Under the pieces are notes generated by a model, which saw only the letters and a list, made by a program, of their open reading frames with translations, did not search any database and was not told the DNA's origin. DNA of 64,000 nucleotides from Limnohabitans sp. MORI2. GTDB lineage: Bacteria > Pseudomonadota > Gammaproteobacteria > Burkholderiales > Burkholderiaceae_C. The position numbers and the translations under genes are program-made. The stretch lies in assembly GCF_027925025.1 (NCBI RefSeq), contig NZ_AP027058.1, positions 558,001 to 622,000 of the forward strand, given 5' to 3'. Each line of letters begins with the position of its first letter. Position 1 is the first letter of the stretch. This document shows positions 25,374-35,086 of the stretch, one piece after another.

Positions 25374-26104
25374 TGCGCAGCGTGAATGCCATCGTCAAGT
25401 TTCTGCGTGTCATTGCGCAGGTCTTGCATGGCTATTGGACGATTCGCACCATCTTTCCCAAACTCAATGACGAGCAACAGGCTCGCTATGTTGAGGTATG
25501 GGCGCGCGGCATGTTGTCCATCATCGGCATCGAGGTTCGCGTCAAAGGGCATCCAGCACCAGGCCCTGTGTTGATGGCGGCCAATCACATCTCGTGGCTC
25601 GACATTTTGGTGATGCACGCTGCGTGTCACTGCCGCTTTGTGGCCAAGTCTGAAATTCGCAGCTGGCCCTTGGTGGGCGTGCTCACCACGGGTGGCGGCT
25701 CGCTCTATATCGAACGTGGTTCACGCAACGATGCCATGCGCGTGGTGCATCAAATGGCCTCTGCGCTACAAGCGGGGCAGGTACTGGCAGCATTCCCTGA
25801 GGGGCGCACGGGCGACGGCATCACCCTGTTGCCGTTTCATGCCAATTTGTTGCAAGCTGCCATTTCGGCAGATGCGCCGATTCAGCCTGTGGCCTTGCAG
25901 TTCATTGACGCACAAAGCAAGCAACGCAGCTTGGCGCCGTGTTACCGAGATGATGACACCTTGATTAGCTCACTCTGGCGCACCCTGTGTGCACCGCCTT
26001 TGTTAGCGCAAGTGCGTTACGGTGAGACACAATATGCCAATGGTCGAAACCGTCGTACATGGGCGCAAGATTTGCAGGCCGATGTGGCAGCTCTCTGTCA
26101 GTGA
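25373..26104 (+). CDS. 1-acyl-sn-glycerol-3-phosphate acyltransferase (PlsC-like)
   Basis: A 243-residue membrane-associated acyltransferase for phospholipid synthesis. Motif I is AANHISWLDILVMH (H-x4-D), motif II SLYIERGSRND, and motif III AFPEGRTGDGITLLPFH (E-G-R-T/S). The N-terminus has a hydrophobic stretch (AIVKFLRVIAQVLHGYWTIR) that should bind the membrane. Its ATG shares a base with the stop of pyrC' (TGATG), so it is the last gene of the pyr run by translation coupling. The substrate could also be an ornithine lipid precursor (OlsA), which motif reading cannot exclude. Confidence 0.9.
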   Translation: MRSVNAIVKFLRVIAQVLHGYWTIRTIFPKLNDEQQARYVEVWARGMLSIIGIEVRVKGHPAPGPVLMAANHISWLDILVMHAACHCRFVAKSEIRSWPLVGVLTTGGGSLYIERGSRNDAMRVVHQMASALQAGQVLAAFPEGRTGDGITLLPFHANLLQAAISADAPIQPVALQFIDAQSKQRSLAPCYRDDDTLISSLWRTLCAPPLLAQVRYGETQYANGRNRRTWAQDLQADVAALCQ

Positions 26105-26118
26105 TATCCTTTTCAACT

Positions 26119-26547
26119 ATGGCAACCCAAAAAACCTCATCCACCGTCAAGGCCAAGCCTGCAGCTAAAAAAACGACGGCTGTGAAAAAACCCGTGGTCA
26201 AAAAAGCAGCCATCAAGGCGACCAAAAAGTCTTCAGCCAAAAACGACAATTTGGATGAAATGTTCGACTTGGCGGCAGAAACCTTTCGCGTCATGTCGGC
26301 ACCCATGCGATTGAAGATCATCAATTGCTTGTGCAACGAAGAAAAAAACGTGGGTCAGTTGTTAGAAGAAATCGACACCACGCAACCCAATATGTCGCAG
26401 CACTTGAACACCTTGTTCAACGCCAAAATTTTGGGTCGTCGTCGTGAAGGGGTGCAAATTTATTACCGCATCATCAACGAACGTGTGGTCACGCTCTGCC
26501 GTGCGGTGTGCACGCAAATTGCCATTGACAGCGATATCGCTCACTGA
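26119..26547 (+). CDS. ArsR-family repressor with lysine/alanine-rich N-terminal tail and cysteine pairs
   Basis: A 142-residue winged-helix regulator. Residues 1-42 are a low-complexity Lys/Ala/Thr/Val tail (KAKPAAKKTTAVKKPVVKKA), like a histone H1-type tail, followed by a standard ArsR domain: FRVMSAPMRLKIIN, the recognition helix TTQPNMSQHLNTLFNAKIL, and wing REGVQIYYRI. Cysteines are at 70, 72, 127 and 131 (IINCLC and LCRAVC); their places, start of the first DNA-binding helices and the last helix, are close to the two redox cysteines of persulfide sensors BigR/SqrR. The sequence suggests a thiol-based repressor, perhaps of sulfur oxidation genes; that is inference. ATG at 26119 gives the tail; 14 bases after plsC. 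Confidence 0.85.
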   Translation: MATQKTSSTVKAKPAAKKTTAVKKPVVKKAAIKATKKSSAKNDNLDEMFDLAAETFRVMSAPMRLKIINCLCNEEKNVGQLLEEIDTTQPNMSQHLNTLFNAKILGRRREGVQIYYRIINERVVTLCRAVCTQIAIDSDIAH

Positions 26548-26562: not shown

Positions 26563-28128
26563 GTGATTCGACGAATCTCGGCTGCACTGTTTTTTTCTTG
26601 TTTGTTCATCATTGTTGATCGACTCAGCTACATCCATCCGTTTGCGGGGCTGAACATCACGCCGTGGAATCCACCGGCGGCTCTGGAAGTTCTGTTTTTA
26701 TTTTTAGTCGGCAACATCTGGATGACATGGGTGTATTTCACCCTGGGGCTTTCCGATTGGTTGGTGCGTGGCACTTTGTTGCTGTCTCCTACGGTGCTTT
26801 TAGGTAATGCAGTTTTGGTGATTTGCTATGCCAGCATTGCACTGTGCTTGCGTTGTGTGTTGGGGGCAGAGGCGGCACTGCGCGATCGACGTGAAATGGT
26901 TTGGTTGGGCGTTGTCATTGTGTGTGGTGCTTTGTTCACGGCGATGGCATACGTGGGCACGCACATAGGGTTAGGTGTGTTGGCAGCACAGGATTTTTTA
27001 GGAGCCGTGCATCGCTTTTTCATTGGGGATTTGTTGGGTCTGATGGTTTGGTTACCCCTGTTTTTTGTGGCCCGAGACAAACGCCGCCGTGAGCAATATG
27101 CACATATGCTGCGCAGTGTTTTGTTTTGGAGCCTGTTGGCCGGCTTGGTGGTTTGCATGTGGTTGATTTTTTCATTGCCTCTTGCAGACCAGATGAAATA
27201 TTTCTTCTCTTTGTTCTTTGTCCTTGGCTTAGTGGCCGCCACTTACTCACTGCCTGGGGCCACATTGGTGGCAGCTTTGATTCAAGTGCCCTTGGTCTTT
27301 TCAACCATGCATGCGGGGGTTCTGCCCGCTGATTTGATGGACATGCAAATTGTCATGCTCACCTTGTCTTTGACGGGGCTGATCATCGGCACTGTGGTGG
27401 ATGAGCGTTTGCGCACCGAAGAGCGGTTGCGTGACAGTTTGCAATTGGTCGCCGCCGGTGAATTGGCGGGTTCTTTGGCGCATGAGCTTCACCAACCCAT
27501 GAGTGCACTCAGTGCGTATGCCGAGTCAGCGTTGATGCTCACCGAGCGGCAAGCTCAGTCATCTGATTCGAGCGACACACAATTGGCGCGCGTCTTGCGC
27601 AATATCGTCCATGAAACCATGCGGGCCACGGATATTGTCCGTGGCTTGCGCAGTTACTTTATCTCTGGTGTTTCGACGATGGAAGATGTGCAAGTTCATG
27701 CCTGGGTAGAAGAGTGTGTGACCCGTTTGACTGAACGTGCCGCACAAGCCCAAGTGACGCTCGTCACCTTGTACGAACAACGCGTGTCAGGTGTCATGGT
27801 GGACCGAATCCAAATGAGCACGGCCTTGGGGAACTTGATCAAAAATGCCATTGATGCTTCAGCGCCAGGCATGCAAGTCACCATCCGCGTGCTGGATGAT
27901 CACCATACCTTGACCATTCGCGTCATGGATCAAGCGAATTTATTAGAAGCCGAGGTGATTGACCAAGTGTTTCGTCCGTTTTATTCCGACAAAAAAGAGG
28001 GCTTAGGCTTGGGCTTGTCTGTCAGTCAATCGTTGGTACAGAATAATGGCGGCGTTTTGCGCTATCGCGCCCAGCCTGATAAATGTTTTGAAATTCTGTT
28101 GCCCCTTGGAGATCACTTAGATGCTTGA
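26563..28128 (+). CDS. MASE1-like membrane sensor histidine kinase
   Basis: A 521-residue kinase. The N-terminal 280 residues hold about eight membrane helices with YIHPFAGLNITPWNPPAALE, a pattern of MASE1 sensor domains. The phosphoacceptor is H307 in AGSLAHELHQPMSALSAYA; the ATPase domain has the N box LGNLIKNAIDAS and the G box KKEGLGLGLSVSQSLVQNNGG. GTG at 26563 is the start, with GAGGTG upstream. It overlaps the response regulator by 8 bases, so the two are a pair. The ligand is unknown; MASE1 domains have no established ligand. Confidence 0.9.
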   Translation: MIRRISAALFFSCLFIIVDRLSYIHPFAGLNITPWNPPAALEVLFLFLVGNIWMTWVYFTLGLSDWLVRGTLLLSPTVLLGNAVLVICYASIALCLRCVLGAEAALRDRREMVWLGVVIVCGALFTAMAYVGTHIGLGVLAAQDFLGAVHRFFIGDLLGLMVWLPLFFVARDKRRREQYAHMLRSVLFWSLLAGLVVCMWLIFSLPLADQMKYFFSLFFVLGLVAATYSLPGATLVAALIQVPLVFSTMHAGVLPADLMDMQIVMLTLSLTGLIIGTVVDERLRTEERLRDSLQLVAAGELAGSLAHELHQPMSALSAYAESALMLTERQAQSSDSSDTQLARVLRNIVHETMRATDIVRGLRSYFISGVSTMEDVQVHAWVEECVTRLTERAAQAQVTLVTLYEQRVSGVMVDRIQMSTALGNLIKNAIDASAPGMQVTIRVLDDHHTLTIRVMDQANLLEAEVIDQVFRPFYSDKKEGLGLGLSVSQSLVQNNGGVLRYRAQPDKCFEILLPLGDHLDA

Positions 28129-28714
28129 GAGTCGTTTGATTTGCGTGGTGGATGATGATGCATCTGTGCGCGACTCTTTGTCGATCATGCTTGGACTCAA
28201 GGGCTTTGACTGTCGAACTTACGAAAACAGTGAATCGTTTTTAGGTGCCTTACCCGATCGTCCCTGCTGTGTGGTCTTGGACTTGAACATGACCGGCATG
28301 AACGGTTTGGATTTGCAAGAAAAAATCAGTGCCGCACCTGTTCCCATGGAGGTGGTTTTTCTCACCGCGTTTGCCGATGTGGATGTGATGCGTCGGGCAT
28401 TTTTGGGACAGGCCGTTGATTTTTTAGAAAAACCTGTGGTGATGCCTCAGTTGCTCAATGCGATTGAGCGTGCGTTTGAGCGCTTGAAATCGAGCTCAGC
28501 TCAGCGCGTTCATACCCAGTCGCTAGAGATGCTCACGCCCCGTGAGCGCGAAGTGATGGTGGCCATTGCACAGGGCATGACCCACCGCGAAGCCGGTGAG
28601 TTGCTGGGCATCAGCCCACGCACGGTGGAAGTGCACAAAGGCCGTGTGATGGAAAAGCTAGGTGTCAAAACCTTGGCTGAGTTGGTGCGCTTGAGCATTG
28701 ACTCAACCAAGTGA
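28121..28714 (+). CDS. FixJ/LuxR-type two-component response regulator
   Basis: A 197-residue regulator. The receiver domain has CVVDDDASVRDSL, the phosphorylated D54 in VVLDLNMTGMNGLD, and the conserved lysine in FLEKPVVMPQ; the C-terminal LuxR helix-turn-helix is LTPREREVMVAIAQGMTHRE and GISPRTVEVHKGRVMEKLGV. The start ATG at 28121 follows TTGGAG and overlaps the kinase gene. A TAAGG-N6-CCGTA dyad begins 28 bases downstream of this gene and recurs at 31719-31734, so it is a plausible binding site for this protein (inference). Confidence 0.95.
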   Translation: MLESRLICVVDDDASVRDSLSIMLGLKGFDCRTYENSESFLGALPDRPCCVVLDLNMTGMNGLDLQEKISAAPVPMEVVFLTAFADVDVMRRAFLGQAVDFLEKPVVMPQLLNAIERAFERLKSSSAQRVHTQSLEMLTPREREVMVAIAQGMTHREAGELLGISPRTVEVHKGRVMEKLGVKTLAELVRLSIDSTK

Positions 28715-28741: not shown

Positions 28742-28778
28742 TAAGGCCTAGCCCGTACGTGGGTTATCGAATTTTCAA
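28742..28778 (+). promoter_or_regulatory. Operator/promoter element A (copy 1 of a bracketing pair)
   Basis: A TAAGG-N6-CCGTA dyad (28742-28757) runs into a 28-base block (28751-28778: GCCCGTACGTG, one base, GTTATCGAATTTTCAA). The block recurs on the other strand at 31698-31725 with one mismatch. It ends 29 bases before the ATG of the MarR-like gene at 28808, a position fitting an activator site plus -35 region. Confidence 0.65.
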
Positions 28779-28807
28779 AACTAAGAATTCTCCCTACATT
28801 GGGAGGC

Positions 28808-29182
28808 ATGACTGATACAAGCGCTCAACCGACAGCTGATGTGGCTCGTCGCAACTATTTGGAATTCTTGGCGGCGATGTATCAAGCCAAAGATACGAAC
28901 GGCGAGTTGATTTTGCTGCCACCAGAGGATCAACGATTGTTGGAGTTCATTGCGGTGCAATGGTTCCTTAATAAACCGCTGTCCATGATGCAAATCCTCA
29001 CCTCGCGCGAGGTGTTGTTTCTAGGCGCATCCACCATCAGCCGAAAAGTCGAAGGCTTGCGCCAAAGGGGCTGGATTCGCACCGTGGCTGATGCGGCAGA
29101 TCGCCGCATCAAATGGTTGGAGCCTACCGACCAGGCTTGGACTTACCTAGACCGCGTCAATACGTTGATGCCATTGCCTTAG
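28808..29182 (+). CDS. MarR-like winged-helix transcriptional regulator
   Basis: A 124-residue DNA-binding protein starting MTDTSAQPTADVARRNYLEF after a strong GGGAGG. The core is a winged helix: LLEFIAVQWFLNKPLSMMQI, the recognition part GASTISRKVEGLRQRGWIRT and the MarR-type wing DAADRRIKWLEPTDQAW. The usual N- and C-terminal dimer helices are short. Its 3' end overlaps the OsmC-YcaO gene by 26 bases tail to tail. Because both convergent transcripts begin with the same promoter block, it is probably expressed together with the OsmC-YcaO side under one regulator. The ligand is unknown. Confidence 0.82.
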   Translation: MTDTSAQPTADVARRNYLEFLAAMYQAKDTNGELILLPPEDQRLLEFIAVQWFLNKPLSMMQILTSREVLFLGASTISRKVEGLRQRGWIRTVADAADRRIKWLEPTDQAWTYLDRVNTLMPLP

Positions 29183-31361
29183 CGCGCGCGGCATGCAGCT
29201 TTTTGTAGCTGTCCATCAGGCGGTGGTGTCGGTCTAGACCTTCTAGCTTCATGCTGGTGGGCGTCAAGCCGTAAAAACGCACGGTGCCATCGACCGACCC
29301 GAGGGCCGCATCCATGCGTGTGTCGCCAAACATGCGGCGAAAGTTGGGGGTGTAGTCGTCGAGTTCCAACTCTGGGTCCAGTACCACTTCAAGCACCACA
29401 TTCAAGGCTTGGTAAAACAAGCGGCGTTCAACCGTGTTGTCGTTGTATTGCAAGAAGGCTTGCACCAGGTCTTGTGCATCATCAAATTGTTTCAACGCCA
29501 GATGAATCAGCAGTTTCAACTCCATCACGGTCAGTTGGCCCCATTCTGTGTTTTCGTCAAACTCAATGCCAATCAAGGTGGCGATATCCGAGTACTCATC
29601 AAGTTCGTTGTTTTCTAAGCGGTCAAGCAAGGCTTCTAGGCCCGAATCGTCCAAACGATGCAGGTTGAGTATGTCTGCGCGGAACAACAAGGCTTTGTTG
29701 GTGTTGTCCCACACCAAGTCTTCTACAGGGTAGATCTCGGAATAGCCTGGCACCAAGATACGACAGGCCACTGCGCCCAATTGGTCGTACACCGCGGTGT
29801 AAACCTCTTTGCCCATGCCGTCCAAAATGCCCAACAAAGTGGCTGCTTCTTGAGCGTTGGCAACGTCGCCTTGGCTTGAGAAATCCCATTCCACAAATTC
29901 AAAATCTGACTTGGCACTGAAGAAGCGCCACGACACGATGCCACTGGAGTCGATGAAATGCTCCACAAAGTTGTTGGGCTCGGTGACGGCGTTGCTCTCA
30001 AACGTGGGTGGGGGCAAATCGTTGAGGCCTTCAAAGCTGCGACCTTGCAGCAACTCGGTGAGGCTGCGCTCCAACGCAACTTCGAAGCTGGGATGCGCAC
30101 CGAAAGAAGCAAACACACCGCCGGTGCGTGGGTTCATCAAGGTGACGCACATCACAGGGTAGGTCCCACCTAAAGATGCGTCTTTCACCAAGACTGGGAA
30201 GCCTTGTTCTTCCAAGCCTTGAATGCCCGCCAGGATGCTGGGGTATTTGGCCAACACATGCTGCGGCACATCGGGCAGGGCGATTTCGCTTTCGATGATC
30301 TCGCGTTTGACGGCGCGTTCAAAAATTTCAGACAAACATTGCACTTGGGCTTCCGCCAAGGTGTTGCCTGCGCTCATGCCGTTGCTGACAAACAAGTTTT
30401 CAATCAGGTTGGAGGGGAAGTACACCACTTCGCCATCGGAGTGGCGCACATACGGCAGTGAACAAATGCCACGCGCGGTGTTGCCCGAGTTGGTGTCGAT
30501 CAAATGCGAAGCGCGCAACTCACCGTCAGGGTTGTAGATGGCTAGGCAGTGCTCATCCAAAATTTCAGTAGGCAGTGCATCGTCTGCGCCTGGCTGAAAC
30601 CAGCGCTCGTTGGGGTAGTGCACAAACTCGGCTTGAGCGATGTCTTCGCCCCAATACGCACTAGCGTAAAAATGGTTGTTGCTGATGCGCTCGATGTATT
30701 CGCCCAAGGCTGAGGCCAGTGCGCTTTCTTTGGTGGCACCTTTGCCATTGGTGAAGCACATGGGTGAATGGGCATCGCGGATGTGCAGCGACCACACATT
30801 GGGAATGATGTTGCGCCACGACGCAATTTCAATCTTGATGCCCAAATTGGCCAAAAGCCCAGACATATTGGCGATGGTTTGCTCCAGCGGCAGGTCTTTG
30901 CCTGTGATGTAGGTGCTGGTATCTGCTGTGGGCTGAAGGGTGAGCAAGGCTTGCGCATCTGCATCTAAGTTAGCGACTTCTTCAATCACAAACTCAGGGC
31001 CAGCTTGCACCACTTTTTTGACCGTGCAGCGCTCAATGGAATTCAAAATGCCACGTCGATCCACCTCGGAAAGATCGGGAGGCAACTCCACTTGAATTTT
31101 GAAAATTTGTTGATAACGGTTTTCCGGGTCAACGATGTTGTTTTGTGAAAGCCGAATGTGTTCGGTCGAGATGTTGCGCGTGTCGCAATACAGCTTCACA
31201 AAATACGCCGCACACAAGGCTGAGGAGGCTAAGAAATAATCAAAGGGACCGGGGGCCGAGCCATCGCCTTTGTAGCGAATGGGCTGGTCGGCCACCACGG
31301 TGAAATCGTCAAACTTGGCTTCGAGGCGGAGTTTGTCGAGGAAGTTGACTTTGATTTCCAT
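29157..31361 (-). CDS. OsmC-YcaO fusion protein
   Basis: A 734-residue two-domain protein. Residues 1-150 are an OsmC domain (MEIKVNFLDKLRLEAKFDDF; peroxide-reactive cysteines probably in SSALCAAYFVKLYC and NSIERCTVKKV). The rest is a YcaO protein: NGKGATKESALASALGEYIE and LAEAQVQCLSEIFERAVKRE provide the ATP/Mg glutamates, with VMCVTLMNPRTGG and the helical C-terminal extension of E. coli YcaO. YcaO domains activate amide backbones with ATP; E. coli YcaO aids ribosomal protein S12 methylthiolation. No azoline-precursor, dehydrogenase or TfuA gene is nearby. ATG 31361 (MEIKVNF) was chosen over upstream starts by the OsmC N-terminus. Confidence 0.9.
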   Translation of the reverse strand: MEIKVNFLDKLRLEAKFDDFTVVADQPIRYKGDGSAPGPFDYFLASSALCAAYFVKLYCDTRNISTEHIRLSQNNIVDPENRYQQIFKIQVELPPDLSEVDRRGILNSIERCTVKKVVQAGPEFVIEEVANLDADAQALLTLQPTADTSTYITGKDLPLEQTIANMSGLLANLGIKIEIASWRNIIPNVWSLHIRDAHSPMCFTNGKGATKESALASALGEYIERISNNHFYASAYWGEDIAQAEFVHYPNERWFQPGADDALPTEILDEHCLAIYNPDGELRASHLIDTNSGNTARGICSLPYVRHSDGEVVYFPSNLIENLFVSNGMSAGNTLAEAQVQCLSEIFERAVKREIIESEIALPDVPQHVLAKYPSILAGIQGLEEQGFPVLVKDASLGGTYPVMCVTLMNPRTGGVFASFGAHPSFEVALERSLTELLQGRSFEGLNDLPPPTFESNAVTEPNNFVEHFIDSSGIVSWRFFSAKSDFEFVEWDFSSQGDVANAQEAATLLGILDGMGKEVYTAVYDQLGAVACRILVPGYSEIYPVEDLVWDNTNKALLFRADILNLHRLDDSGLEALLDRLENNELDEYSDIATLIGIEFDENTEWGQLTVMELKLLIHLALKQFDDAQDLVQAFLQYNDNTVERRLFYQALNVVLEVVLDPELELDDYTPNFRRMFGDTRMDAALGSVDGTVRFYGLTPTSMKLEGLDRHHRLMDSYKKLHAARAKAMASTY

Positions 31362-31460
31362 GGAGGCTCTTTTGAAAAATGCACAAAACCTTGTAGTCGC
31401 ATTTCTCGCCACCACGCAGGCGGTCAGTATATAAAAACGAGAGGGTTGCCGCCTGCTGCG

Positions 31461-31640
31461 TCAAGCGTGCAGCGAAATCATGACCACGGTGAAAACAGCC
31501 AATAAAAAAATCAGAAATCCTGCCACATCCTTACGATACAACTCGGCGTCATTCGAGGCAGGTGGTGTCTTGATCCATTCACGGCGCATCGGGCTTTGAG
31601 TTTTCTTTTTCACCAAAACTTGTGTGACGATGGGTGTCAT
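31461..31640 (-). CDS. 59-residue single-span membrane protein, unknown
   Basis: A short gene with an AAGGAG ribosome-binding site nine bases before its ATG. The protein starts MTPIVTQVLVKKKTQSPMRR, is basic in its first half (KKKTQSPMRREWIKTPP), and ends in one hydrophobic helix (VAGFLIFLLAVFTVVMIS) with a short LHA tail, so it is a tail-anchored inner-membrane protein with a cytoplasmic N-terminus. It is the first gene behind promoter copy B and lies 99 bases ahead of the OsmC-YcaO gene. I do not recognise a family. Confidence 0.7.
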   Translation of the reverse strand: MTPIVTQVLVKKKTQSPMRREWIKTPPASNDAELYRKDVAGFLIFLLAVFTVVMISLHA

Positions 31641-31697
31641 GTCTGTGCTCCTTGATGGTGGTTGGTCATGCCAGCACTTTAGGAAAAACAAGTGTTC

Positions 31698-31734
31698 TTG
31701 AAAATTCGATAACGCACGTACGGGCAATACCGTA
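31698..31734 (-). promoter_or_regulatory. Operator/promoter element B (copy 2, inverted)
   Basis: On the minus strand this repeats element A: 27 of 28 bases identical over 31725-31698, preceded by a perfect dyad TACGG-N6-CCGTA (31719-31734). It reads towards the 59-residue membrane protein, whose ATG is 57 bases further on. The repeated block has no similarity to coding sequence on either side. Confidence 0.65.
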
Positions 31735-31746
31735 GTGATGCGGGGC

Positions 31747-31773
31747 GAAAAAAAGGCCGCACAAGGCGGCCTT
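31747..31773 (-). terminator. Terminator after the fcc/DsrE operon
   Basis: On the minus strand AAAGGCCGC, loop CTTGT, GCGGCCTTT followed by seven T. Nine perfect pairs. It starts 24 bases after the stop of the DsrE-like gene and insulates it from promoter B. Confidence 0.9.
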
Positions 31774-31796
31774 TGTGGGCTGCGTGCAGCGATCGC

Positions 31797-32228
31797 TTAT
31801 GGCTTCAGATACACATGACCTTCTTTGGCTTGCAAACGCGCCACTTCGGCCACGCCCGAGGGCACGATCTTGGCATCCATCGACACTTTGTTGGCGTCGA
31901 TGTTGCGCGAGGTGAGTGTGTTGTTGCACACGCGGAACTGCACGCCTTTGCCAGACAAGTCAGACACCATGCCGCTGAACTCGCGGCCTTTGCTGTCTTT
32001 GGCGCCGTCCAGCAAAAAGTCAATGCCAGGTCCGTGCGTGACCACAGTGATTTTGGCGGTGGGATCTGCGTTCAAGTGATTGCGCACATTACCCAAAATC
32101 GCTGCAGCGGTGTCCACGCCAGTGTTGACGTGGTAGACGACCTTGATGTCTTGTGCTTGCACCGAGCCAAAACTCAGTGCGAGACACAAGGTAGCGAAGG
32201 CGTGTGAGAGTTGTTTCATGACATTCAT
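31797..32228 (-). CDS. Periplasmic DsrE/F-like protein
   Basis: A 143-residue exported protein of the DsrE-like fold. Signal peptide MKQLSHAFATLCLALSFGSV with cleavage near VQA-QD, then IKVVYHVNTGVDTAAAILGN, ITVVTHGPGIDFLLDGAKDS, VQFRVCNNTLTSR (single cysteine, the likely sulfur-carrying residue) and PSGVAEVARLQAKEGHVYLKP. Related small exported proteins often accompany sox genes and may bind sulfane sulfur. Start is uncertain: ATG 32228 is used; ATG 32219 and GTG 32243 (which would overlap the flavoprotein stop as GTGA) are alternatives. It is the last gene of the cytochrome-flavoprotein-DsrE operon. Confidence 0.82.
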   Translation of the reverse strand: MNVMKQLSHAFATLCLALSFGSVQAQDIKVVYHVNTGVDTAAAILGNVRNHLNADPTAKITVVTHGPGIDFLLDGAKDSKGREFSGMVSDLSGKGVQFRVCNNTLTSRNIDANKVSMDAKIVPSGVAEVARLQAKEGHVYLKP

Positions 32229-32239
32229 GTTGAGCGTTC

Positions 32240-33526
32240 TCACATCAAGCTGTCAGCCCAAATGTTTTGAGCCCAGTTCCATGCATAGATGCCTTCCAGT
32301 TCGTTGGGTGCAGAAGACACACCGCCGGAGCCGGGCACGGTTTTGTAGGTCTTGTCTTTGTCATCGTACTGGTGAACCGATGCCACATGAACCACCAGCT
32401 TGTCATTCACAAAGCTGTAGCAGGTGTTGCTGAGGAAGGGGGCGGGGTTCACTGGCATGTCTGACAACTGAGCGACGATGGCCGCAGCTGTGACCTTGCC
32501 ATGCGAGTTGGCCATGTGGCCAGACTTAGGCATGAGTGGTGCCAACATGATGGAGTCACCAATCACGTGAATGTCTTTGGCTTGTGTGGACTCAAACGTT
32601 TGGTAGTGCACACCGCACCAACGTGCGTTGACGTTGGCCAAGTTGGATTGCACGGCAATGCCACCTGCACGCATGGCGGGCAACACATTGAGCACATTGG
32701 CCTTGACGTCGTTTTGCACATCGAACTTCAAGGTGTTGGTCTTGACATCCACAGCCATGACTTTGTGTTGAGGCATGTATTCCAAGATGCCTTTGTAGTT
32801 GTCAGCCCAGAACTTCTTGAACAACGGACCTTTGGAGGTGACGTCTTGGTTGGTATCCAAGATCAGCACCTTTGATTTGGGCTTGTGTTGCTTGAAGTAA
32901 TGAGCCACTTGACTGGCACGCTCGTAGGGGCCGGGCGGGCAGCGGTAAGGTGCTTCGGGAATGGTGATGGCGTACACGCCACCATCGTCCATCGATTCAA
33001 GTTGACGGCGCAGTGCCAAGGTTTCGGGGCCTGCTTTCCATGCTTGCAAAATTTGGCCGGAGGCGTTGGCTTCTTTCAAACCCTCAATCGTGTTGAACAT
33101 CAAGTCAATGCCGGGCGACATGACGAGCTTGTCGTAGCGAATGGTAGGGCCGCTGGCCAAGGTGACGGTTTTCTTAGCGGGGTCAACGTTGGCCACGTAA
33201 TCACGCACGATGTTGACACCGTGCTTGCCTGAGAGCTTGTCGTAAGGTGTGGTGATGTCGGCCATGGTTTTGCTGCCGCCGATCACCAAGTTGGAGATGG
33301 GGCATGACACAAACTCACCATTGGGTTCAATCAAGGTGACATCAATTTGGTAGTTCGACAACATGCGTACGTACTTGGCGGCAGTGGCGCCACCGTAGCC
33401 GCCACCCACCACGACCACGCGTGCTTTTTCGGGCACGCGACCAACCGAGGCACAACCCACCATGCTGCTGAGTGCACCCAAAGAACCAAGCGCCATAGAG
33501 GCTTGAACAAAACTGCGACGTTTCAT
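32240..33526 (-). CDS. Flavocytochrome c sulfide dehydrogenase flavoprotein subunit (FccB/SoxF)
   Basis: A 428-residue periplasmic FAD protein. A twin-arginine signal MKRRSFVQASMALGSLGAL is followed by the FAD motif RVVVVGGGYGGATAAKYVRM; redox cysteines appear at FVSCPISNLVIGG and PYRCPPGPYERASQ, and the C-terminal part has VHYQTFESTQAKDIHVIGDS and GHMANSHGKVTAAAI, all as in FccB/SoxF, which take electrons from sulfide and pass them to a haem c partner. The partner gene lies 13 bases upstream. Length fits the family. It oxidises sulfide to sulfur or polysulfide in the periplasm. Confidence 0.93.
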   Translation of the reverse strand: MKRRSFVQASMALGSLGALSSMVGCASVGRVPEKARVVVVGGGYGGATAAKYVRMLSNYQIDVTLIEPNGEFVSCPISNLVIGGSKTMADITTPYDKLSGKHGVNIVRDYVANVDPAKKTVTLASGPTIRYDKLVMSPGIDLMFNTIEGLKEANASGQILQAWKAGPETLALRRQLESMDDGGVYAITIPEAPYRCPPGPYERASQVAHYFKQHKPKSKVLILDTNQDVTSKGPLFKKFWADNYKGILEYMPQHKVMAVDVKTNTLKFDVQNDVKANVLNVLPAMRAGGIAVQSNLANVNARWCGVHYQTFESTQAKDIHVIGDSIMLAPLMPKSGHMANSHGKVTAAAIVAQLSDMPVNPAPFLSNTCYSFVNDKLVVHVASVHQYDDKDKTYKTVPGSGGVSSAPNELEGIYAWNWAQNIWADSLM

Positions 33527-33539
33527 GATGAATCCTTGA

Positions 33540-33866
33540 TTAACGCTTGGTGGCAGCGTAGTAGCTGGAGATGGTGTTGATTTGGGCGTCAGTCAGACCT
33601 TTGGTGATTTGGTGCATCACCGTGGCAGGACGTGTGCCGTCTTTGAACGCTTTGAGTTGCAACACCATGTAGTCTTTGGGCATGCCGACCAGTGAGGGAA
33701 TGGCTGAGCCTTCAACGGTGCGGCCATCGGTGCCGTGGCAGTTGGCGCACATGGCCGCGGTGGCACGGTTGTGCAATTCAGTGGCTTTGTCTTGTGCCTG
33801 AGCGGCAGCGCTTACACCCAGCATCAAGGCGGTGGCGGCCAGCAAGCGGAGAGATGTGGTTTTCAT
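33540..33866 (-). CDS. Monohaem cytochrome c, electron-accepting partner of the sulfide dehydrogenase
   Basis: A 108-residue exported cytochrome. Signal peptide MKTTSLRLLAATALMLGVSA, haem motif CANCHG (C40-C43-H44) and a probable distal Met in GMPKDYMVLQL. One haem only, so it resembles the small FccA type or a monohaem SoxE rather than a dihaem SoxE. ATG 33866 follows GAGGA; an upstream start would spoil the signal peptide. It leads the operon with the flavoprotein and the DsrE-like gene. Confidence 0.88.
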   Translation of the reverse strand: MKTTSLRLLAATALMLGVSAAAQAQDKATELHNRATAAMCANCHGTDGRTVEGSAIPSLVGMPKDYMVLQLKAFKDGTRPATVMHQITKGLTDAQINTISSYYAATKR

Positions 33867-33925
33867 CGAGTCCTCGTTGAATGACATGAATTAATCAGTG
33901 ATGGGTAATATATCCAGAATGACAA

Positions 33926-33959
33926 AACGCCATCACGGGGTTAACCCAGTGATGGCGTT
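33926..33959 (-). terminator. Hairpin terminator downstream of the YeeE-like gene
   Basis: AACGCCATCAC at 33926-33936 and GTGATGGCGTT at 33949-33959, eleven perfect pairs with a 12-base loop. On the minus strand it ends in TTTTG. It lies between the transporter gene and the cytochrome operon, so it mainly ends the transporter transcript. Confidence 0.75.
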
Positions 33960-34009
33960 GCCAAGATGTTGAAAACTATAACGTAAGAATTCGAATCAAC
34001 GGCCTGTGC

Positions 34010-35086
34010 TCAAGGCTGTACCAAGGTGGGCGCACTCACGGGCGGTGCATCCATCCAGCGGTCGATCAGGCCTGCGCCCAACCACATGCCAATGAGGGCC
34101 ACCCATGCGGTGAGTGCAAAGATAGCGCCGCCCGTCACACCCGCACCCACAGCGCAACCGCCCGCCAACATGGCACCAAAGCCCATGAAGATGGCGCCCA
34201 CGATGTAGCGTCGCATGCTGTAGCCGTCTTTGAAGCCTTCGAGCTTGAGCTCTTGGCCCAGCCAAGCGGCAAAGAACGAACCCAAAAACACGCCGGGGAG
34301 CAAACCAAAGTCAAACCCAATCGCAGGTGGGTTGGGAGCCAACACACGCATCAACCACTCCGCCGAGGGGCCGCTGAATGTGATGCCTTGGATGTGCACC
34401 ACTTCAAACGAGGCCTTAGCCACGCTGTACGAATACCACCAAGCCAAAGCCACACTCAAACCTGTGCCGATGCCACCCACCCACATCCATGCACGTTGGC
34501 TGGTGCGGGTGGTGAAGTACAAGGCGGCCAGCAACCAAATGCCACCTACCCATAAACCTGTGGTGTGGCTCCAACCCAAGATGGCCAGCAAGTCACGGCT
34601 CGCGCCGCCTTCCACGGTCCAGAGGTTGGTGATCTCTTGGCGCAAAGGCGAGAGTGCACCCGACAGCGCGGATTGCGCAGTGACTGCAAATATCAACCCC
34701 GACAGCAAAGCCCGCAAATTGCCGTTGGCCGACAAGATGAGCAAGCGGCTGGCGCAGCCACGCGTCATGATCATGCCCGCGCCAAACAACAAACCACCCA
34801 CCAACGCACCCGACAAGCTGCCGCGTGTGGCCAGTTGGCGTGCTGTGCTCACATCCAAGTCGCCCAACACAATCAATCCTTGAATGGCAATGACCGCTGC
34901 TGAGAAGGTGAGCAACCACACCGAGAGCTTTTCGCCGAACTGGCGATGCCAAAATTCCACCACCGCAGCGCGTAAACAAAACTTAGACCGCTGCGCAAAA
35001 AAACCAAACAACAAGCCAATGAGCCATCCGCCCGCGGCTAAGACATAGGGTTCGCCATAGGCTTCATTGAGTGTGGTGAGGTTCAT
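34010..35086 (-). CDS. YeeE/YedE family transporter (thiosulfate/sulfur-compound uptake, TsuA-like)
   Basis: A 358-residue integral membrane protein with about nine or more helices arranged as two related halves. The family's conserved cysteine loops are seen: FFAQRSKFCLRAAVVEFW, GMIMTRGCASRLLILSANGN and GFGAMLAGGCAVGAGVTGG. In TsuA (YeeE) such cysteines pass thiosulfate through the channel. It starts MNLTTLNEAYGEPYVLAAGG and is divergent from the metallo-beta-lactamase-fold gene at 35189. A second full-length relative lies at 44592, and a split pair at 45690-46554. Confidence 0.88.
   Translation of the reverse strand: MNLTTLNEAYGEPYVLAAGGWLIGLLFGFFAQRSKFCLRAAVVEFWHRQFGEKLSVWLLTFSAAVIAIQGLIVLGDLDVSTARQLATRGSLSGALVGGLLFGAGMIMTRGCASRLLILSANGNLRALLSGLIFAVTAQSALSGALSPLRQEITNLWTVEGGASRDLLAILGWSHTTGLWVGGIWLLAALYFTTRTSQRAWMWVGGIGTGLSVALAWWYSYSVAKASFEVVHIQGITFSGPSAEWLMRVLAPNPPAIGFDFGLLPGVFLGSFFAAWLGQELKLEGFKDGYSMRRYIVGAIFMGFGAMLAGGCAVGAGVTGGAIFALTAWVALIGMWLGAGLIDRWMDAPPVSAPTLVQP

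What the first reader, a model, noticed from the sequence alone, without database searches (positions are those of the whole stretch)
28742..31734. Two inverted, near-identical promoter elements bracket a convergent MarR / OsmC-YcaO module
A block of 28 bases (GCCCGTACGTG, one variable base, GTTATCGAATTTTCAA) occurs at 28751-28778 on the plus strand and at 31725-31698 on the minus strand, 27 of 28 identical. Each copy overlaps a dyad: TAAGG-N6-CCGTA (copy A) and a perfect TACGG-N6-CCGTA (copy B). Copy A reads into a MarR-like regulator; copy B into a 59-residue membrane protein and an OsmC-YcaO fusion; the two transcripts collide with a 26-base gene overlap. A kinase-regulator pair lies directly beside copy A. 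I infer a small regulon in which a FixJ-type regulator switches on both arms. YcaO fused to OsmC with a dedicated membrane peptide has, to my knowledge, no assigned function.
Basis: partly seen in the sequence, partly recalled or inferred. Interest (0 to 1): 0.78.

Follow-up and report, generated by a model that had tools for sequence, protein, structure and literature searches.

The report
FixJ-type switch beside sodium-proton antiporters
The two matching DNA elements look like switch sites for the neighbouring FixJ-like regulator, and the same kinase, regulator and kind of site recur in other Burkholderiales, often beside sodium-proton pump genes, while the YcaO enzyme gene between them here looks like a late arrival with its own promoter.

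Summary
In detail: two 28-base copies (27 of 28 identical), dyads TAAGG/TACGG-N6-CCGTA, a 26-base convergent overlap; the core occurs exactly twice in the genome.

The regulatory inference is largely right. Both copies have a -10-like hexamer at the same spacing. Three congeners keep both copies around the same small membrane gene and MarR-like gene. The common denominator is the adjacent kinase plus FixJ-type regulator: at 28 further kinase-regulator loci a TAMG-N7/8-CKTA dyad lies within about 350 bases outside the pair in 18 (20 hits, about 1 expected; N8 was fixed beforehand, N7 added after inspection; each gives 10 hits). One equals the published S. meliloti FixJ site, 16 of 16.

The YcaO reading is not supported. 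The congeners lack YcaO-OsmC here and keep it about 204 kb or more away; the window copy retains a promoter shared with relatives; 0 of 80 YcaO-OsmC loci carry the element.

New: 15 of those 28 loci, and 4 of 14 others, carry a cation/proton antiporter gene, mostly read from the box. This looks like an uncharacterised kinase switch for cation/proton antiport, rewired in this genus to a 59-residue membrane protein and a MarR-like protein. Signal, binding and activation are inferred.

The parts
28742..28777 (+). Box A: dyad TAAGG-N6-CCGTA, then CGTG-N6-CGAATTTTCA; regulator site plus -35 region of the MarR-like gene
   Evidence: a weight model without the G000 sites ranks it first in the window (39.3 bits; best non-site 10.2)
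28795..28800 (+). -10-like TACATT of arm A, 17 bases after TTTTCA (28772-28777) and 7 bases before the ATG
   Evidence: TACAGT at the same place in G048, G088, G089
31699..31734 (-). Box B: perfect dyad TACGG-N6-CCGTA, then CGTG-N6-CGAATTTTCA; regulator site plus -35 region of the small membrane gene
   Evidence: second in the window in the same model (36.2 bits)
31676..31681 (-). -10-like TAAAGT of arm B, 17 bases after TTTTCA (31704-31699)
26563..28128 (+). Sensor histidine kinase; N-terminal membrane domain homologous to MASE1 of relatives
   Evidence: HisKA, HATPase_c; homologue L188 hits MASE1 at 1.9e-21; 33% identity to that homologue in alignment A2
28121..28714 (+). FixJ-type response regulator (receiver plus LuxR/GerE helix-turn-helix)
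28808..29182 (+). MarR-like winged-helix protein, 124 aa, arm A
   Evidence: MarR_2 below its cut-off, HTH_27 at its cut-off
31461..31640 (-). 59-aa protein with one C-terminal hydrophobic segment (read from the sequence), arm B
   Evidence: homologues
29157..31361 (-). OsmC-YcaO fusion (TIGR03549); judged an insertion between the two convergent genes
   Evidence: absent here in G048, G088, G089, present elsewhere in them
31426..31431 (-). TATACT, putative -10 of YcaO-OsmC's own promoter
   Evidence: TTTAT(AT)ACTG at the same place in 7 of 21 relatives
31748..31774 (-). Terminator-like hairpin AAAGGCCGC-CTTGT-GCGGCCTTTTTTT between the DsrE gene and box B
   Evidence: read from the sequence printed; not listed by the consensus scan

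Best explanation
The two elements are promoters of one small, local two-component regulon. The membrane kinase (26563-28128) controls the FixJ-type regulator (28121-28714). The phosphorylated regulator binds the TAMGG-N6-CCKTA dyad and the adjoining sequence just upstream of a weak -35 (TTTTCA). It thereby controls two separate transcripts: a MarR-like protein (arm A, perhaps from a leaderless mRNA) and a 59-residue membrane protein (arm B). Shown: the anatomy, its conservation, and the association of the site with this kinase-regulator family across the order. Inferred: binding, activation rather than repression, and feedback by the small membrane protein on the kinase. Across Burkholderiales the commonest neighbour read from the box is a cation/proton antiporter gene, so the likely signal is cation, pH or ion-gradient stress; in this genus the target has been replaced. 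YcaO-OsmC is a late insertion with its own promoter; read-through from arm B is possible but not needed.
For: Congeners G048, G088, G089 have sulfur genes, box, small gene, MarR-like gene, box, regulator, kinase in the same order without YcaO. G042: kinase, regulator, box, 57-aa hydrophobic protein, MarR-like gene; G036: box, small genes, kinase, regulator, MarR-like gene. Other genera: box right after the regulator in G425 (TAAGG-N6-CCTTA, both halves changed), G428, G203, G488; variant in G506. Scan of 398 family genomes: 12 matches at <=1 mismatch, of which 7 at these loci, 3 in tRNA-Ser genes, 2 in coding sequence. Test on 28 new loci: dyad outside the pair at 18, 20 hits against 0.99 expected; spacers 7 and 8 give 10 hits each, the eleven other spacers from 3 to 15 give 7 in all, and the coding cores of these loci 0 at spacers 7 and 8. 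L209 carries TAAGTAATTTCCCTTA, the S. meliloti FixJ site quoted in PMC4999443. Helix near FixJ's: ISPRTVEVHKGRVMEKL vs ISPRTIEVYRANVMTKM. No MarR-like hit by tblastn at G425, G428, G203, G488, G506 (E <= 0.01) or at the 28 new loci (E <= 1e-8, 1.5 kb flanks), so the regulator, not the MarR-like protein, goes with the box. Antiporter genes at 15 of 28 new and 4 of 14 earlier loci.
Against: No binding, transcription-start or expression data. Box missing at 2 of 14 first-set loci (G040, G251); 10 of 28 new loci lack the strict dyad. Spacer 8 was set by the first loci and the FixJ site, but spacer 7 was added after I had seen the new loci: with spacer 8 alone the score is 10 of 28 loci. Neighbouring loci are partly close relatives. 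The expression also hits 3 times inside the kinase-regulator coding sequence of the first set (3 in 90,182 bases over both sets). In one search the reversed-pattern control gives 19 matches (counted by eye) against 12 real ones, so only location is informative there. A model from the three sites outside the genus ranks box A first but box B third in the window. No consensus sigma-70 promoter is called at either box. Arm A's -10 ends 7 bases before the ATG, so either the mRNA is leaderless or the -10 or start codon is wrong; the GGAGG before the ATG would then lie outside the transcript. Antiporter genes of Limnohabitans lie away from the kinase and lack the box, and the window's genome has no PF07399 gene, so the antiporter link is not direct here.
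Confidence: 0.76

Rival explanations
1. The element is the operator of the MarR-like protein, which controls itself and the small protein.
For: Box and MarR-like gene co-occur in 6 of 8 genus genomes with the kinase. MarR-like paralogues elsewhere in the genus have a TACGTG box upstream in 4 of 28 loci tested.
Against: The box is present at G425, G428, G203, G488, G506 and dyads at 18 of 28 further loci, where tblastn found no MarR-like homologue (at E <= 0.01; at E <= 1e-8 within 1.5 kb). The dyad has the FixJ geometry.
Confidence: 0.08
2. The inverted pair are terminal repeats of a mobile element carrying MarR, YcaO-OsmC and the small gene.
For: Near-identical inverted repeats flank a block with a gene (YcaO-OsmC) that is elsewhere in relatives.
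Against: The same inverted pair exists in three congeners without YcaO; G042 and G036 have single boxes at promoters; -10 spacing is conserved; the core occurs nowhere else in the genome; the interval is filled by the three genes named.
Confidence: 0.02
3. Box B, through read-through, makes YcaO-OsmC a true regulon member in this strain, a recent recruitment.
For: Same strand, 99 bases between the small gene's stop and the YcaO ATG; no terminator called between them, though the stretch can fold.
Against: YcaO-OsmC keeps a promoter-like motif shared with relatives; the element is absent from 80 of 80 other YcaO-OsmC loci at <=3 mismatches.
Confidence: 0.25
4. The system governs the neighbouring sulfide-oxidation genes.
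For: Adjacent in 4 of 8 genus genomes with the kinase (window, G048, G088, G089).
Against: The only two boxes in the window are those at the small and MarR-like genes; a terminator-like hairpin separates the sulfur genes from box B; tblastn found none of the DsrE, FCSD, cytochrome or YeeE genes at the other kinase loci of the first set.
Confidence: 0.1

Closest known systems
FixL-FixJ and the fixK promoter (Sinorhizobium meliloti)
   Same: LuxR/FixJ-type regulator with a similar recognition helix; dyad TAAG-N8-CTTA; an upstream TAAG plus a motif near -33, as described for fixK promoters (PMC4999443, introduction passages)
   Different: Regulator scores 156 bits against a FixJ cut-off of 255; kinase has a MASE1-like membrane domain and no PAS hit; targets are not fixK
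UhpB-UhpA (recalled: MASE1-type kinase with a LuxR-type regulator controlling a transporter gene)
   Same: MASE1-type sensor, LuxR-type regulator, transporter target in relatives
   Different: Site and targets differ; no comparison was run, this comes from memory
nhaA-I (Li+) riboswitch control of antiporter genes, PF07399 among them (PMC9646797, passages)
   Same: Same antiporter family; nhaA-I RNA precedes it in 4 of 4 Limnohabitans copies tested
   Different: RNA-based; no Rfam hit at gathering score in the 14 kinase loci scanned with the window, 12 of them with PF07399 (L188-L190 and L225 not scanned), where a dyad or box mostly stands instead
OsmC domain/YcaO domain-containing protein, TIGR03549
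   Same: The window protein scores 1450 bits against a cut-off of 900
   Different: Only its place, between two box-controlled genes, is unusual

Membership tests
FixJ-type response regulators | Receiver plus LuxR/GerE helix-turn-helix | tested here: met
FixJ equivalog (NF006900) | Score above the curated cut-off of 255 bits | tested here: not met
   156.3 bits; so FixJ-type, not FixJ
FixJ-type binding site | TAMG-N8-CKTA dyad next to the regulator gene and upstream of a -35 region | tested here: met
FixJ-type binding site | Binding by the phosphorylated regulator | not testable with these tools
   needs protein
MASE1 sensor kinase | MASE1 domain in the kinase | tested here: inconclusive
   window kinase no hit at 0.001; homologue at 33% identity hits PF05231 at 1.9e-21
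MarR family | Pfam match over cut-off | tested here: inconclusive
   MarR_2 23.9 against 27; HTH_27 22.2 against 22.2
TIGR03549 OsmC-YcaO | Score above cut-off over full length | tested here: met
Transposon terminal repeats | Transposase between the repeats and repeats moving with the block | tested here: not met

The most novel reading that the evidence does not exclude
An uncharacterised two-component family of Burkholderiales, with a MASE1-type membrane kinase and a FixJ-type regulator, senses cation or proton-gradient stress and switches on cation/proton antiporters of several unrelated families (PF07399, Mrp E/F/G, NhaD-like, perhaps PF00999) through a FixJ-like dyad. In Limnohabitans the switch has been rewired to a 59-residue membrane protein that feeds back on the kinase and to a MarR-like protein made from a leaderless mRNA.
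Probability: 0.33. Interest if true: 0.72.

Novelty: new variant of a known kind. Interest (0 to 1): 0.52.

Why it matters
MASE1 domains are widespread membrane sensor domains whose ligand is mostly unknown (recalled). A kinase family that travels with a defined DNA site and, at 19 of 42 loci examined, with a cation/proton antiporter gene gives a concrete hypothesis for what this one senses, and the site lets targets be predicted in other genomes. The window shows the same switch with different targets, a worked case of regulatory rewiring, and warns against reading a newly inserted gene (YcaO-OsmC) as part of a regulon.

Tried and rejected
YcaO-centred reading: rejected. MarR-like autoregulation: unlikely. 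Mobile-element repeats: rejected. Wider regulon in the window's genome: none found; the exact core occurs twice only, and a degenerate pattern with 2 mismatches gave 5 places against 5 for the reversed control. Of those, G000:C1:1741852 precedes a MarR-like paralogue beside an aldehyde dehydrogenase gene, a different box also seen in other congeners. Antiporter genes of Limnohabitans under the box: no, 0 of 4. Three of the 12 family-wide matches are tRNA-Ser genes. Structure prediction was not used. Papers: PMC4999443 (passages), PMC13063428 (abstract, section list and passages), PMC9646797 (passages); the other papers were seen only as search listings. No paper joining MASE1 kinases with antiporters was recognised in the listings (1 row; 12 of 257 rows; 2 rows); none of those papers was opened, and the library is open-licence only. 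Changed on checking: spacer 7 is now declared as chosen after inspection, the control count is 19, and the leaderless problem of arm A is added; confidence in the main reading went from 0.78 to 0.76 and the novel case from 0.35 to 0.33 for that.
Full report
Observation. The dyads, the 26-base overlap of the two stop ends and the 59-residue protein are also as described. The exact core occurs twice in the whole genome. The closest named relatives by the YcaO search include Limnohabitans and other Burkholderiales; the genus name for the window is inferred from that.

Gene content. Kinase (HisKA, HATPase_c), response regulator (receiver, GerE), a MarR-like protein at or below Pfam cut-offs, OsmC-YcaO, then DsrE, a flavocytochrome-c-type sulfide dehydrogenase flavoprotein, cytochrome c and a sulfur-transport (YeeE-type) protein. 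NCBIfam names the fusion TIGR03549 (1450 bits, cut-off 900) and its YcaO part passes NF040716. The regulator scores 156 bits for FixJ, below that model's 255. Its best matches among solved chains are 1yio (StyR by recall) and FixJ 5xso, with a very similar recognition helix.

Conservation in the genus. Of 84 genus genomes, 8 carry the kinase at E <= 1e-50. In G048, G088 and G089 the locus is the same but without YcaO-OsmC: box, small gene, MarR-like gene, box, regulator, kinase. The -10 there is TACAGT at the spacing seen in the window. In G042 one box precedes a 57-residue hydrophobic protein and the MarR-like gene; in G036 the box precedes small genes, kinase, regulator and MarR-like gene. 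G086 has a box upstream of the kinase that reads away from it (18.0 bits, not used to build the model). G040 has none. So 7 of 8 have it.

Arm A oddity. The -10 ends 7 bases before the ATG of the MarR-like gene in the window and in G048, G088 and G089. If the -10 is right, that mRNA is leaderless or nearly so. Arm B has a normal leader with AAGGAG before the ATG.

YcaO-OsmC. It lies elsewhere in G048, G088, G089, G042, G033, G041 and G011, and was not found in G036, G086 and G040 (11 genomes searched, the window's own included; those three are 88, 77 and 96% complete). Distances to the kinase locus are about 204 kb in G088, 264 kb in G048 and 1.06 Mb in G089 (coordinates). The TTTAT(AT)ACTG motif stands 72-78 bases before the start in 7 of 21 relatives and at the same place in the window. 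None of 80 YcaO-OsmC loci has the element at 3 mismatches or fewer; 78 of them hold 300 bases upstream, and the loose dyad hits 2. I therefore read the window's arrangement as an insertion with its own promoter.

Beyond the genus. With an alignment of seven kinases, 8 of 398 family genomes match at 1e-100; two are of the genus. At the six others, the box follows the regulator in G425, G428, G203 and G488, is a variant in G506 and is absent in G251. In G425 the dyad is TAAGG-N6-CCTTA: both halves changed together. A family-wide scan with TACGG-N6-CCGTACG-N8-CGAAT found 12 matches at one mismatch or fewer: 7 at these loci, 3 in tRNA-Ser genes, 2 in coding sequence. The reversed pattern hits 19 times, so the number of matches proves nothing; their place does.

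Test on new loci. An alignment of ten kinases found 37 of 399 order genomes at 1e-90. Loci were returned for 30 matches; 2 were known and all 28 others were examined. Ten further matches listed without loci were not fetched. With TA[AC]G-N7/8-C[GT]TA in up to 330 bases upstream of the kinase and 300 downstream of the regulator, 18 of 28 have a hit, 20 hits in all against 0.99 expected from composition shuffles. Spacer 8 came from the first loci and the FixJ site; spacer 7 I added. Each gives 10 hits (spacer 8 at 10 loci, spacer 7 at 9); spacers 3-6 and 9-15 give 0 to 2 each, 7 in all; the coding cores of these loci give 0 at spacers 7 and 8 in 60,288 bases. Over both sets the cores give 3 in 90,182 bases, so those 3 are in the first set. 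Some loci are close relatives (L224/L225, L217/L219/L228), so hits are not fully independent. In L209 the dyad is TAAGTAATTTCCCTTA, identical to the FixJ site of the S. meliloti fixK promoter as quoted in PMC4999443. In the first set of 14 loci the same expression hits 10; G036's dyad is strict but lies beyond the stretch searched, upstream of its small genes; G042's (TCAGG-N6-CCTTA) is found only by the weight model; G040 and G251 have nothing.

What the box reads into. PF07399 antiporter genes lie at 4 of 14 first-set loci (L187-L190) and 12 of 28 new loci (L206-L211, L215, L220, L223-L226) by tblastn (Pfam confirmation for L208, L209 and an L188 fragment). Three more new loci have other cation/proton antiporter genes: MnhE, MrpF and MnhG in L216, a CitMHS protein that I read as NhaD-like in L213, and a PF00999 exchanger upstream of the kinase in L227 (PF00999 was looked at in L227 only). 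That makes 15 of 28 new and 19 of 42 in all; in 14 of the 15 the gene lies in the reading direction of the box as I placed it, L227 being the exception. Strict dyads occur at 13 of the 15 and at 5 of the other 13. A protein of 103-109 residues stands between box and antiporter in L187, L188, L189, L206 and L207, and a 51-residue frame in L190; hydropathy gives two spans in L206 and L207. G425 has 59- and 109-residue hydrophobic frames after the box and no antiporter hit.

In Limnohabitans the PF07399 gene, where present (G048, G088, G089, G040), lies away from the kinase, lacks the box and has an nhaA-I RNA upstream in 4 of 4; this RNA class is reported to sense Li+ (PMC9646797). The window's genome has no PF07399 gene. 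So the link to antiport is a property of the family, not shown for this strain.

Mechanism. The position of the dyad and adjoining sequence just upstream of a poor -35 suggests activation with contact to the polymerase, as at fixK. In the six genus loci with an assignable target, both a small membrane protein and the MarR-like protein are kept; the small protein may be a feedback partner of the kinase, but no test here shows it.

Verdict. Real element, regulator well guessed, central gene wrongly guessed, and a broader family with an ion-transport theme uncovered.

Noticed in passing
window 31797-35086 (-): Sulfide-oxidation-like cluster (DsrE, flavocytochrome-c-type flavoprotein, cytochrome c, YeeE-type transporter), with an ArsR-type regulator at 26059-26547, bracketing the two-component locus in the window, G048, G088 and G089.
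   Followed up: partly
window 28795-28808 and L117, L162, L163: The -10-like hexamer of arm A ends 7 bases before the MarR-like ATG in all four genomes, pointing to a leaderless mRNA.
   Followed up: partly
G000:C1:1741852-1741873 (L148:5853) and L018, L019, L028, L029: MarR-like paralogues, at least some beside an aldehyde dehydrogenase gene, preceded by a different box (TACGTGGTTTTAC and variants); 4 of 28 paralogue loci tested, plus the own-genome one.
   Followed up: partly
L234-L237: PF07399 antiporter genes of Limnohabitans each preceded by an nhaA-I (Li+) riboswitch, 4 of 4.
   Followed up: partly
L217, L219, L228: A related dyad (TACGC start, TACGCTATGTAACTTA in L217) upstream of the kinase in three genomes of one other family, without an antiporter hit in the stretch held.
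   Followed up: no
window genome: Only one YcaO (the OsmC fusion); G048, G088, G089, G033, G041 and G011 also have a second, shorter YcaO at about 45% identity.
   Followed up: no
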